Shown here piece by piece: positions 24,746-29,721 of a stretch of DNA of 64,000 nt (its first letter is position 1; every line of letters starts with the position of its first letter). The position numbers and the translations under genes are program-made. The notes below the pieces were generated by a model. That model saw only the letters and a program-made list of their open reading frames with translations, was not told where the DNA came from and did not search any database. This stretch comes from Bermanella marisrubri (GTDB lineage: Bacteria > Pseudomonadota > Gammaproteobacteria > Pseudomonadales > Oceanobacteraceae). The stretch is taken from positions 687,001-751,000 of the forward strand of contig NZ_CP051183.1 of the NCBI RefSeq assembly GCF_012295615.1. The letters run 5' to 3'.

Positions 24746-24840
24746 TCATTAGCTGGCAGTCAGTTACGGCATGAGTGTAGAGAGATGCTTATGCCTGCTT
24801 TGGTACGGTGCTTGGCTGTAACAGCAAGAAACAGGAGAGT

Positions 24841-25953
24841 ATGGTGAAGTTTGTATTGGCTATAGTTCTAGCATCGATGCTTTTATCGTTACTTGCCTGT
24901 GCAGGTAAAGAACAAAAGCAATATCAAAGCGATCACTACAAAGATGGTAAGTTTATTAATTTAGAACCCTTTGAAAAGGATTATGGCTTTGCTCGAACCA
25001 TCGATATCATCAACAAGTTTTGGTTTACCGAGTTCCCTTTTACCGAGCCTGACCGTCCTATACCCACGCAAACGCTGACGCCTGAGCAAATAGAGCAGGC
25101 ACCAAATGGAACTTTATACCGTTTAGGTCATAGTACAGTATTGATGAAGTTGTCTGGAAAGTTGATTCTGACCGATCCAATGTTCAGTGAGCGTGCGAGT
25201 CCTTTCCAATGGATAGGTCCAAAGCGGTTCCATGCCCCACCGATATCCATTGAAGAATTACCGCCTATTGATTTTGTATTGATTAGTCACGATCACTACG
25301 ACCACCTGGACGAATCTACTATTGAGCAGCTTCATGAAAAAGTTGGTCAATTTTTTGTGCCATTAAAAGTAGGGCGTTACTTACTGGATTTCGGTGTACC
25401 CAAGGAAAAAGTGCAAGAGTTTGATTGGTGGCAGGAAGCAACAGTTGGTCCTTTTAGAATCGCTGCCACACCAAGTAATCATTTTTCTGGACGTGGATTA
25501 TTTAATCGTGATGAAACACTATGGGTTTCGTGGGTTATCATCGACGAGGCGACGCGCATCTATTTTAGTGGTGATAGTGGATATTTTTCTGGGTTTAAAG
25601 AGATTGGTGAGCGTTACGGACCTTTCGATGTGACGATCATGGAGAATGGAGCCTATAACCCAGACTGGGCTCATAACCATATGTTTCCTGACGGCACGGT
25701 GAAGGGCCATCAAGATTTGCAAGGCAAGCGTTTATTACCGGTACACAACGGCACTTTTAAATTGGCGTTTCATCCTTGGTTCGAACCGATGCAGCAAGTC
25801 AGTGATATTGCCAAACGCGAACAAGTGTCAGTCTTATACCCAATGATGGGGCAGCCTGTTCATGCTCATAAGGATAAGATGTTTGATCCTTGGTGGTGGT
25901 TACCACAGCGTTCAGAGGCTACTGATGGGTTTGATGAAGCGAAAATGCATTAA
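24841..25953 (+). CDS. Metallo-beta-lactamase-fold lipoprotein, NAPE-PLD/UlaG-like
   Basis: A 370-residue exported hydrolase. ATG 24841 was chosen because AGGAG lies six bases upstream and it opens a lipoprotein signal with lipobox LLAC (Cys20). The metal centre motif is HDHYDH, with further ligands in SNHFSGRG, FSGDSGY and VHNGTF. The sequence resembles N-acyl-phosphatidylethanolamine phospholipase D-like proteins, whose bacterial members are annotated only broadly. The envelope location is an inference from the lipobox. Confidence 0.85.
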   Translation: MVKFVLAIVLASMLLSLLACAGKEQKQYQSDHYKDGKFINLEPFEKDYGFARTIDIINKFWFTEFPFTEPDRPIPTQTLTPEQIEQAPNGTLYRLGHSTVLMKLSGKLILTDPMFSERASPFQWIGPKRFHAPPISIEELPPIDFVLISHDHYDHLDESTIEQLHEKVGQFFVPLKVGRYLLDFGVPKEKVQEFDWWQEATVGPFRIAATPSNHFSGRGLFNRDETLWVSWVIIDEATRIYFSGDSGYFSGFKEIGERYGPFDVTIMENGAYNPDWAHNHMFPDGTVKGHQDLQGKRLLPVHNGTFKLAFHPWFEPMQQVSDIAKREQVSVLYPMMGQPVHAHKDKMFDPWWWLPQRSEATDGFDEAKMH

Positions 25954-25967
25954 AAACATCCTATCTA

Positions 25968-25993
25968 TGCAAGTTGGCGCAAAATGACTTGCA
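25968..25993 (+). promoter_or_regulatory. Inverted repeat and weak promoter upstream of the RsmZ-like RNA
   Basis: TGCAAGT (25968-25974) and ACTTGCA (25987-25993) form a 7-bp inverted repeat with a 12-base centre, just upstream of a -10-like TATCTT at 26011-26016. The half-sites resemble GacA-box halves (TGTAAG / CTTACA) but the spacing is 14 rather than 6, so I do not call it a GacA site. The right arm overlaps the likely -35 position. Confidence 0.35.
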
Positions 25994-26022
25994 GAGGTAA
26001 TAAGAGCGACTATCTTTAAATT

Positions 26023-26175
26023 CAAAGGTTAGGACGATCTTAGGACTTTTCAGCAGGACGCTGAACCAGTGGACGGGTACGGAAAGCATCGGACAGGCCA
26101 GGATGGCACCAAGTTAGGATGACACCTAGGGTGAAAAGCAAAAAGGGTAGAGGCTTATAGTCTCTGCCCTTTTTT
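26023..26175 (+). ncRNA. rsmZ: RsmZ/CsrB-type small regulatory RNA
   Basis: A non-coding stretch of about 150 bases contains eight GGA triplets (starting at 26032, 26043, 26056, 26071, 26081, 26091, 26101 and 26117), most as AGGA or CGGA. At least two sit in hairpin loops: TTCAGC-AGGAC-GCTGAA at 26049-26065 and GCC-AGGAT-GGC at 26097-26107. Loop GGA motifs are the binding sites through which RsmY/RsmZ/CsrB RNAs sequester the RNA-binding protein CsrA/RsmA. A strong terminator closes it. In Pseudomonas rsmZ lies beside fdxA, close to mutS, and here fdxA and mutS follow directly. The 5' end is estimated from a weak -10 box. Confidence 0.8.
26140..26175 (+). terminator. Rho-independent terminator of the RsmZ-like RNA
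   Basis: Stem AAAAAGGG-T-AGAG / CTCT-G-CCCTTTTT with one T-G wobble and a nine-base loop, ending in a T-run. It marks the 3' end of the small RNA. Confidence 0.88.
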
Positions 26176-26184
26176 AATGTGTGC

Positions 26185-26358
26185 TTATTCTTCCGCGTAC
26201 ACGTCTGCTTCGATCCGAGCTGTTTTTAAAGAGGTATTATCGCCTTGTTGGCTGTTAGCATGCTGATTGCCCTCGAGGGCGTTGTTGTCATGACTAAAAT
26301 ACAAAGCTGCAGTGCCCAGACATACAATGAATACCGCGAAAAGTTGGATGCGGTTCAT
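26185..26358 (-). CDS. Small single-pass membrane or secreted protein, 57 residues
   Basis: An unrecognised short gene between the small RNA and fdxA. ATG 26358 has an excellent AAGGAG ribosome-binding site. The N-terminus (MNRIQLFAVFIVCLGTAALY) is a signal anchor, followed by a polar tail of about 35 residues rich in Asn, Gln, Asp and Glu and ending YAEE. No homologue can be named from sequence alone. Its tail end converges with the RsmZ-like terminator nine bases away. Confidence 0.65.
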   Translation of the reverse strand: MNRIQLFAVFIVCLGTAALYFSHDNNALEGNQHANSQQGDNTSLKTARIEADVYAEE

Positions 26359-26486
26359 CTCAGCTCCTTTTTAATTATTATACGAGCGGTTTCAGTGTGT
26401 CCTGAATGAACATGAAATGAAACGGGTCAAGTTGGCCATTTTTCACAATGATGGATATAACTCCGTTTATAGAATGTTACAGATAC

Positions 26487-26514
26487 AAAAAAAGCAGCCG
26501 AAGCTGCTTTTTTT
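26487..26514 (-). terminator. Bidirectional terminator after fdxA
   Basis: Symmetric hairpin AAAAAAAGCAGC-CGAA-GCTGCTTTTTTT. It ends fdxA transcription, 18 bases after its stop; the symmetry allows use from either side. Confidence 0.9.
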
Positions 26515-26531
26515 GCTGAGTTGTATTGTGC

Positions 26532-26855
26532 TTAACGCTCAAGATGCTCAATTTTACCTTCGACACCGTCCCATTCTTCAGCATCTGGAAGCTTGTCTTT
26601 CATCTCTGTAATGTTTGGCCATTCTTCAGCGAGTTCAGCATTTAATTCAATAAACTTCTCTTGTCCTGCGGGTAGTTCATCTTCACTAAAGATCGCTTCT
26701 GCTGGGCATTCTGGCTCACAAAGGGCACAGTCGATACACTCATCAGGATGAATTACTAGGAAGTTAGGGCCTTCATAAAAACAGTCTACTGGGCAGACTT
26801 CAACACAGTCTGTGTATTTACACTTGATGCAGTTTTCCGTTACGACAAAAGTCAT
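26532..26855 (-). CDS. fdxA: 7Fe ferredoxin FdxA
   Basis: A 107-residue ferredoxin carrying one [3Fe-4S] and one [4Fe-4S] cluster. The N-terminal motif has C9, C12, C17, C21 and C25, and the second motif is [12 protein letters not shown]. It is nearly identical in design to Azotobacter FdI and Pseudomonas FdxA, including the C-terminal [13 protein letters not shown] extension. It lies downstream of mutS on the same strand with a terminator between them, next to the RsmZ-like RNA gene, as in Pseudomonas. Confidence 0.97.
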
Positions 26856-27033: not shown

Positions 27034-29721
27034 TTATTTTAGTTTGCCCTTGAGTTCATAAAGTAGTTCAAGCGCTTGCCTTGGTGTCAGATCATCTGGG
27101 CTGATATCTTTAAGCGCTAATTCCACTTCACTGGGTTCAGGCGGTGCTGCGAACATGTCTCCCTGCCAGATGGCTTCTGCACTGTCGTTTGGCTGAGACG
27201 CTGAAGGTTGAGGTTCCGTGACTTTAGCCACTTGAGGTGTCTCAGAAATGGATTGCTCAATCGGGCTGGGTTCAATGTTGGTTTCTTCTAACAAAGCAAG
27301 CTTTTGTTTGGCCTGTTCCACGACTTCTAAAGGCACGCCCGCTAGCTTGGCTACTTGCAAGCCATAGCTTTGGCTGGCGGGGCCTTCTTCCACATGGTGG
27401 AGAAATACAATATGGTCATTATGTTCGGTAGCGGTTAAATGCACGTTGGCAACATTGTCACTGCTCTCCACCAACTGCGTCATTTCAAAATAGTGGGTCG
27501 CGAATAGGGTATAGGCTTGAGTGTGTTTTGAGAGATATTCAGCGCTGGCCCAAGCTAAAGATAAACCATCAAACGTACTGGTACCGCGACCCACTTCATC
27601 CATCAAGACCAAGCTTTGCGCAGTAGCGTGATGGAGAATGTTAGCGGTTTCTGTCATTTCTACCATAAAGGTTGAACGGCCACCGGCGACGTCATCGCTT
27701 GAGCCCATACGGGTAAAAATGCGATCTAGAAGACCAATCGTCGCGCTATCTGCCGGAACATAACTACCAATGTGGGCGAGCAACGCAATGTGTGCTGCTT
27801 GACGCATATAGGTCGACTTACCACCCATGTTTGGGCCGGTAATCACGAGCATTTTACGGTTTTGATCAAAGCGCACATCGTTTGCCACAAATGGGTCTTC
27901 GATGACGGCTTCTACCACGGGGTGGCGGCCCTGTTGAATATCAATGCCAGCATTTTCGGTGAGCTCAGGGCGAACATAGCGCTGGGTGACGGCTCGTTCT
28001 GCTAAATTCGACAATACATCCAGTTCGCTGATGGCGGCCGCTGTATCTTGCAGAGCCGCTAATTGATCCGCTAAGGATTCAATGAGTTCTTCATAAAGGG
28101 CTTTTTCTCGAGAAAGCGCGCGGCTTTTGCTGGAAAGCGCTTTGTCTTCAAACTCTTTAAGTTCAGGTGTGATAAAACGCTCCGCATTTTTCAATGTCTG
28201 TCGACGAATATACTCGGTTGGCGCCTCACCCGCTTGAGCTTTGCTGATTTCAATGTAATAACCGTGCACTCGGTTGTAGCCTACTTTTAAGGTGCTAATA
28301 CCGGTCTTTTCACGTTCACGGGTTTCAATGTCGATTAGGAACTGGCCGGCGTTCTCACTGATGCCGCGCAGCTCATCTAATTCTTCGTCAAACCCCTCGG
28401 CAATCACACCACCGTCACGAATCACCACAGGTGGGTTTTCTACAACCGCATTGGTTAGGGTTTCAACTGTCTCTGGGTAGGTACTAATGCGTTGACCCAG
28501 AGCCGCAATGGGCGCTGCATCGACATCTGATATGGCGTTTTGCAATTGTGGTAAAACGGCTAAAGCATCTCGTAAGCGCGCCAGATCTCGAGGGCGGGCG
28601 CTGCGCAATGCCACTCGGCTGAGAATCCGCTCGATATCACCGATTTGTTTGAGCACATTGTGGATATCTTCATAACCATGGGTTTCGATCATGGCGCCAA
28701 TAGCATGTTGTCGCTCTTTCAACACGGATTGTTGACGTAAGGGTCGATTCAGCCAGCGACGCAATAGTCGACTGCCCATGGCCGTCGCGGTACGATCTAA
28801 TACCCAGGCCAAGGTGAAATCAGTATCACCGTTTAAATTGATATCAATTTCGAGATTTTTGCGGGTAGCCGCATCCATGACGATGGCATCGTCCGCTTGC
28901 TCTAGAAGGAGAGTGCGAATGTGGGGCAAGTTGGTGCGCTGAGTTTCTTTAGCGTAATGAATCAAACTACCTGCAGCGCCAATGGCTTGCTTCAAATGCT
29001 GACAACCAAAGCCATGCAAGTCTTTGGTTTGGAATTGTTCGGTCAGCAGGCGAAAGCCAGTCTCGTATTCAAATTCCCAAGGCGGCAAACTCTGAGCCCC
29101 TTTACGCTCGACTATTTCGTTACTGTGTTGTTGATCTTCACTGTAGAGCAGCTCAGCCGGGCGCAGACGCTCTAGTTCACCATGCAATGCTTCTTCTGAA
29201 TGAACTTCCATCACACTGAAGCGGCCGCTGCTGATATCCAGTGTTGCAATGCCATGGGTCTGTTTTTGTGTTCGGCCATCAATGTGGCTATTCACCGCTA
29301 CCAATAAATTGTCTCGACGCTCATCCAAAAAGCTTTCATCTGTCAGGGTACCCGGTGTAATCACCCTCACGACTTTGCGTTCAACTGGCCCCTTGCTGGT
29401 GGCTGGGTCGCCAATTTGCTCGGCAATGGCCACAGATTCACCCATTTTCACCAGTTTGGCGATATAGCCTTCCGCTGCATGGTAAGGGATACCTGCCATG
29501 GGGATCGGCGCGCCACCGCTTTTGCCTCTCGCGGTTAGCGTAATGTCCAATAAGCGCGCGCTTTTCTTGGCATCGTCATAAAACAGCTCATAGAAATCAC
29601 CCATGCGATAAAACACCAGCTGCTGCGGGTGCTCCGCTTTAATGCGCAAATATTGCTGCATCATAGGTGTGTGTTCAGATGCGTCTTTTGTGGCTTTTTT
29701 CGGGGCAGTTTCAACGGCCAT
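27034..29721 (-). CDS. mutS: DNA mismatch repair protein MutS
   Basis: MutS recognises mismatches and starts methyl-directed repair. The mismatch-probing F-x-E motif is F43/E45 in GDFYELF. The ATPase domain has Walker [26 protein letters not shown] and ATHYFEMT. At 895 residues it is slightly longer than the E. coli protein; the extra length is a low-complexity Ser/Pro/Gln-rich linker at about 815-860 before the C-terminal dimerisation helix. It is followed by fdxA, the Pseudomonas order. Confidence 0.98.

What the first reader, a model, noticed from the sequence alone, without database searches (positions are those of the whole stretch)
25954..26184. Unannotated RsmZ-type small RNA beside fdxA and mutS
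Eight GGA triplets in about 90 bases, several in hairpin loops, followed by a strong terminator. Four of them recur every 10 bases (26071 to 26101), a tight CsrA-sponge layout. Beside fdxA-mutS this matches the place of rsmZ in Pseudomonas, although rpoS is not next to it here.
Basis: partly seen in the sequence, partly recalled or inferred. Interest (0 to 1): 0.7.

Follow-up and report, generated by a model that had tools for sequence, protein, structure and literature searches.

The report
RsmZ-like small RNA near fdxA
Between a lipoprotein gene and the ferredoxin gene fdxA lies an unrecognised small-RNA gene that almost certainly soaks up the regulator protein CsrA; it is the local counterpart of the well-known Pseudomonas RNA RsmZ, so it is a new example of a familiar device rather than a new one.

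Summary
Eight GGA triplets (26032-26117, + strand) form the densest such cluster in the window, followed by a strong terminator (26140-26175). A sigma-70-type promoter (25989-26016) puts the RNA at about 26024-26175. Comparison makes it a real gene: in seven genomes of the genus it keeps 7-8 GGAs, mostly in loops of small stems whose bases change in compensation. Over the whole genome, Rfam's CsrB model picks this site alone (E = 2.6e-4; next 0.6). A model built only from the genus also finds Pseudomonas rsmZ itself, at the same place (just past fdxA, opposite strand). Two sister genera keep rpoS-sRNA-fdxA-mutS; in this genus rpoS has moved away. The genome has one CsrA and GacA beside uvrC. 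Differences: Rfam's RsmZ model does not recognise it; the canonical GacA box (TGTAAG-N6-CTTACA) is missing, replaced by a genus-conserved box (AAGTTGGCGNNAAATGACTT) touching the -35; the 10-base spacing is not conserved; the window's own minimum-energy fold does not show the hairpins. Transcription and CsrA binding are untested. A CsrA sponge of the RsmZ/CsrB kind, probable positional orthologue of rsmZ; known kind, modest interest.

The parts
25968..25993 (+). Inverted repeat TGCAAG-N14-CTTGCA holding the genus-conserved box AAGTTGGCGNNAAATGACTT (25971-25990); probable activator site overlapping the -35
   Evidence: Exact in 6 of 9 genus genomes (G000, G001, G002, G005, G007, G008), diverged in G003; no exact copy elsewhere in the 9 genomes (3 inexact ones) and 0 matches to the reversed control pattern. 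Role inferred.
25989..26016 (+). Sigma-70-type promoter: -35 TTGCAG (25989-25994), 16-base spacer, -10 TATCTT (26011-26016)
   Evidence: Direct reading; -35/N16/-10 conserved in genus. Not picked up by the simple promoter scan.
26024..26175 (+). RsmZ/CsrB-like small RNA (start inferred, within a few bases)
   Evidence: R1 match 120.9 bits (a sequence the model was built from); CsrB RF00018 23.1 bits, E 2.6e-4 over the whole genome; conserved in 7 of 9 genus genomes.
26025..26041 (+). Hairpin 1: AAGGUU [AGGAC] GAUCUU
   Evidence: equivalent hairpin in relatives with different stem bases.
26049..26065 (+). Hairpin 2: UUCAGC [AGGAC] GCUGAA
   Evidence: relatives GCAAC/GUUGC, UACAAC/GUUGUA: compensatory changes.
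26071..26093 (+). Three GGA motifs (26071, 26081, 26091) in weakly structured linker
26097..26107 (+). Hairpin: GCC [AGGAU] GGC
   Evidence: relatives AGCC/GGCU and UUUGUC/GACAAG.
26113..26123 (+). Hairpin: GUU [AGGAU] GAC
   Evidence: GUC/GAC in relatives.
26124..26132 (+). ACC-UAG-GGU mini-hairpin, nearly invariant in genus
26140..26175 (+). Intrinsic terminator, 16-pair stem and U-tract
   Evidence: stem kept with compensatory changes.
24808..25953 (+). Metallo-beta-lactamase-fold lipoprotein gene upstream of the sRNA; same neighbour in G005, G008, G002
   Evidence: PF12706 E 1.3e-44; 53-57% identical relatives next to the sRNA in L003-L005.
26532..26855 (-). fdxA ferredoxin gene, convergent with the sRNA as in Pseudomonas
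27034..29721 (-). mutS
   Evidence: 61-66% identical to MutS beside fdxA in named genomes.

Best explanation
26024-26175 (+) encodes a stand-alone small RNA of about 150 nt that presents about eight GGA motifs, four or five in loops of short stem-loops and the rest in linkers, and so binds several dimers of the genome's single CsrA protein, releasing CsrA-repressed mRNAs. It is the positional and probably evolutionary orthologue of Pseudomonas rsmZ. Shown here: the conserved gene, structure, promoter, terminator, synteny, and presence of CsrA and GacA. Inferred: transcription, CsrA binding, and activation through GacA or another regulator acting on the genus-specific box at the -35.
For: CsrB model over the whole 3.55-Mb genome: best hit is this site (E 2.6e-4), next 0.6. 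Homologues in 7 of 9 genus genomes, 7-8 GGAs each; more GGAs in stem-loops than random in six of seven (p 0.001-0.024; window 0.056). Covariation on 7 sequences: 92.8% of cells paired against 38-52% when the structure is slid; 14 cells with both sides changed against 4.6 in shuffles (0/500). The genus-only model R1 finds real Pseudomonas rsmZ: 22 of 25 hits at E<=0.01 among 80 named fdxA loci lie just downstream of fdxA on the opposite strand, 17 of them independently called PrrB_RsmZ by Rfam. Sister genera keep rpoS-sRNA-fdxA-mutS. One CsrA, nearly identical to solved CsrA/RsmA proteins over residues 1-56; GacA (65% identity, NF007018 297 bits over cut-off 280) beside uvrC.
Against: No transcript or binding data. 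No Rfam match at gathering score; the RsmZ model does not list this site even at E<=1 in the own genome. No canonical GacA box. The conserved fold is 14.7 kcal/mol above the MFE in the window's own sequence, and without the terminator the fold is no better than shuffles (z -0.71). The GacS/BarA sensor domain PF09984 was not found in the genome. Only 2 of 27 genus- and family-level fdxA loci searched carry a strong R1 match beside fdxA (one in the genus, one outside).
Confidence: 0.92

Rival explanations
1. A CsrA-binding sRNA that arose independently near fdxA, analogous to but not orthologous with rsmZ.
For: Low sequence similarity to RsmZ (RF00166 does not match); promoter box differs from the GacA UAS.
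Against: Same place and orientation as rsmZ in Pseudomonas, in sister genera with rpoS adjacent, and in Marinomonas; R1 detects genuine RsmZ.
Confidence: 0.12
2. A 3'-UTR-derived or read-through RNA of the upstream lipoprotein gene rather than an independent gene.
For: Only 70 bases separate the stop codon (25953) from the inferred start; the lipoprotein gene is the neighbour in four genomes.
Against: Own conserved promoter; in G007 the sRNA is kept beside different genes, the long frame upstream of it being on the opposite strand (L111); in Pseudomonas and sister genera the upstream gene is rpoS.
Confidence: 0.04
3. Chance GGA-rich intergenic sequence with a terminator.
For: Density alone is matched by 6% of shuffles; single-sequence fold without the terminator unremarkable.
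Against: Conservation, covariation, synteny and the genome-wide CsrB ranking.
Confidence: 0.01

Closest known systems
RsmZ / PrrB of Pseudomonas (Rfam RF00166)
   Same: Position: convergent with fdxA, next to mutS; roughly 130-150 nt; eight GGA motifs split between stem-loops and linkers (P. protegens RsmZ: eight GGAs, four in loops and four single-stranded, PMC12047976); strong terminator.
   Different: Not recognised by RF00166; rpoS no longer adjacent; canonical UAS (TGTAAGCATTCGCTTACT for rsmZ, PMC4353343) absent; a different box at the -35.
CsrR2 of Alcanivorax (PMC9788540)
   Same: CsrA-related sRNA outside Pseudomonas beside a ferredoxin gene in opposite orientation; own promoter; six GGAs; those authors already noted the parallel with fdxA-rsmZ.
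   Different: CsrR2 is described as antisense to fdx; here the RNA ends about 356 bases before the fdxA stop codon and does not overlap it.
CsrB/RsmB (Rfam RF00018)
   Same: Only Rfam family with a significant match (23.1 bits, E 2.6e-4 genome-wide); same GGA stem-loop principle.
   Different: CsrB model is 356 positions long; score far below the gathering score of 71.

Membership tests
CsrA/RsmA-sequestering sRNAs (CsrB/RsmZ kind, Rfam clan CL00106) | Multiple GGA motifs, several in stem-loop apices, conserved in relatives | tested here: met
CsrA/RsmA-sequestering sRNAs (CsrB/RsmZ kind, Rfam clan CL00106) | CsrA protein encoded in the same genome | tested here: met
   Single CsrA at G000:C1:2720008.
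CsrA/RsmA-sequestering sRNAs (CsrB/RsmZ kind, Rfam clan CL00106) | Binds and titrates CsrA | not testable with these tools
   Needs gel shift or pull-down.
RsmZ (PrrB_RsmZ) | Score above gathering cut-off of RF00166 | tested here: not met
   No match at gathering; not among the E<=1 hits of RF00166 in the own genome.
RsmZ (PrrB_RsmZ) | Genomic place between rpoS and fdxA, opposite strand to fdxA | tested here: inconclusive
   fdxA side and orientation met; rpoS side lost in this genus but present in sister genera.
RsmZ (PrrB_RsmZ) | Palindromic GacA upstream box TGTAAG-N6-CTTACA | tested here: not met
   Absent upstream here (best match with a 5-9 base gap has 4 mismatches), found with 0-1 mismatches in two Pseudomonas controls.
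RsmZ (PrrB_RsmZ) | Transcription controlled by GacA | not testable with these tools
   GacA present beside uvrC; control inferred only.

The most novel reading that the evidence does not exclude
In this genus the rsmZ orthologue has lost the usual GacA box and is run from a different, genus-specific operator (AAGTTGGCGNNAAATGACTT) overlapping the -35, essentially one site per genome, so the input to the CsrA circuit has been rewired or GacA's binding site has changed.
Probability: 0.35. Interest if true: 0.42.

Novelty: new member of a known kind. Interest (0 to 1): 0.3.

Why it matters
It places the CsrA-sponge RNA in a gammaproteobacterial genus where the current RNA library sees none, shows that the rpoS-rsmZ-fdxA-mutS block is older than Pseudomonas, and gives a covariance seed that could extend Rfam's RsmZ family. 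The changed promoter box makes the question of how such sRNAs are switched on outside Pseudomonas testable.

Tried and rejected
Rfam at gathering score: nothing. RF00166 on the own genome: three chance-level hits, none at this site. Reading the upstream box as a canonical GacA UAS: spacing N14 instead of N6. Reading it as a sigma-54 promoter (TGGC...TTGC): spacing is three bases too long, rejected by inspection. The 10-base GGA period as a design feature: not conserved. A second Rsm RNA at G000:C1:497326: only its terminator is matched by BLAST in the genus, left open. Genus name of the host: not established (best named MutS match is Marinobacter, 66%).

Full report
Observation. On composition alone this is mild (6% of shuffles reach it), so the case rests on comparison. 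The four GGAs spaced by 10 are real but not conserved.

Anatomy. The lipoprotein gene ends at 25953. A box that is exact in six genus genomes and diverged in a seventh, AAGTTGGCGNNAAATGACTT (25971-25990), runs into a -35 (TTGCAG, 25989), a 16-base spacer and a -10 (TATCTT, 26011); the start is thus near 26024 (inferred). The RNA ends in a 16-pair terminator with a U-tract at 26140-26175. In between are hairpins AAGGUU[AGGAC]GAUCUU, UUCAGC[AGGAC]GCUGAA, GCC[AGGAU]GGC, GUU[AGGAU]GAC and linker GGAs.

Conservation. BLAST found relatives in five other genus genomes and covariance model R1, built from those and the window, added G007: seven of nine genus genomes in all, the remaining two being draft assemblies. 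The stems vary with compensation: 14 cells changed on both sides against 4.6 in shuffles, none of 500 shuffles reaching it; 92.8% of cells paired against 38-52% for slid structures (the alignment was fitted to the structure, so it leans that way; on the MAFFT alignment of six the figures are 8 cells against 3.3 and 90.5% paired). Caveat: for the window's own sequence the conserved fold is 14.7 kcal/mol less stable than the MFE and the region without the terminator folds no better than shuffles.

Family evidence. Rfam finds nothing at gathering score. In a permissive search CsrB (RF00018) matches 26007-26178 with 23.1 bits, and over the entire genome this is the best CsrB hit, E 2.6e-4, with the next at 0.6. 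RF00166 (RsmZ) does not list it. In the other direction, R1, which contains no Pseudomonas sequence, was run on 80 named loci around fdxA: 22 of its 25 hits at E<=0.01 lie just downstream of fdxA on the opposite strand. Rfam independently of those 22 PrrB_RsmZ; four others are two Marinomonas and two metagenome-assembled genomes. Position was not used by the model, so this concentration is its own control.

Synteny. In the window: lipoprotein, sRNA (+), 57-codon frame (-), fdxA (-), mutS (-). In sister genus g6 (G023, G057): nlpD, rpoS, sRNA, fdxA, mutS; in g5 (G012): rpoS, sRNA, fdxA, mutS (RpoS confirmed for G057 by NCBIfam, the rest from the same C-terminal sequence). This is the Pseudomonas order (L010; the rsmZ neighbourhood with fdxA, mutS, nlpD and rpoS is also drawn in PMC4353343). 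In the window's genus rpoS sits about 262 kb away, and fdxA lies 0.35 to about 10 kb from the sRNA in the four genomes where both are on one contig. The simplest reading is an ancestral rpoS-rsmZ-fdxA-mutS block broken on the rpoS side. Most other family members show no R1 match beside fdxA, so the RNA has moved or diverged there.

Circuit. The genome encodes one CsrA, nearly identical to solved CsrA/RsmA chains over residues 1-56; the chains matched include the entries 2mf0-2mfh. It also encodes GacA next to a frame that reads as UvrC (the GacA query was a recalled P. aeruginosa sequence, but the hit was confirmed by NCBIfam NF007018). The periplasmic domain of BarA/GacS (PF09984) was not found, so the sensor is unresolved. 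The canonical GacA box is absent upstream, although the same scan finds it with 0-1 mismatches in two Pseudomonas controls; a genus-specific box stands at the -35 instead.

Mechanism. By analogy with RsmZ of P. protegens, where eight GGAs, half in loops, bind four to five RsmE dimers (PMC12047976), the RNA most likely titrates CsrA and so releases repressed mRNAs. This is inferred from anatomy; no expression or binding data were available.

Novelty. A ferredoxin-linked CsrA sponge outside Pseudomonas has been described (CsrR2, Alcanivorax, PMC9788540), with the parallel to fdxA-rsmZ noted. So this is a new member of a known kind; the altered promoter is the only unexpected part.

Noticed in passing
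L100:1520-1612 (G000:C1 about 497345-497437, +): Possible second CsrA-binding RNA upstream of the cca gene: three GGAs, ACCAGATAGGGTGA resembling the 3' part of this sRNA, then a terminator; best RF00166 hit of the genome (18.4 bits, E 0.08). Only its terminator is matched by BLAST in the genus.
   Followed up: partly
window 26188-26358 (-): 57-codon frame with a hydrophobic N-terminus and an AAGGAG ribosome site between the sRNA and fdxA; no Pfam match and no relative in the loci held.
   Followed up: partly
L113 and L117 (G032, G062; another genus of the family): Long GGA-rich RNAs with GCTATCTTTAATT promoters, away from fdxA: candidate CsrB-like RNAs at another place.
   Followed up: partly
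L094:2175-2431 (-) (G007): Repeated GGA-rich unit (CAAGGATGGGCGGTATAGCGCAAGGAGG...) right after the sRNA's terminator, giving weak R1 hits; looks like an interspersed repeat.
   Followed up: no
window 26486-26515: Palindromic terminator with U/A tracts on both strands downstream of fdxA; weakly matches several enterobacterial sRNA models, chance level.
   Followed up: no
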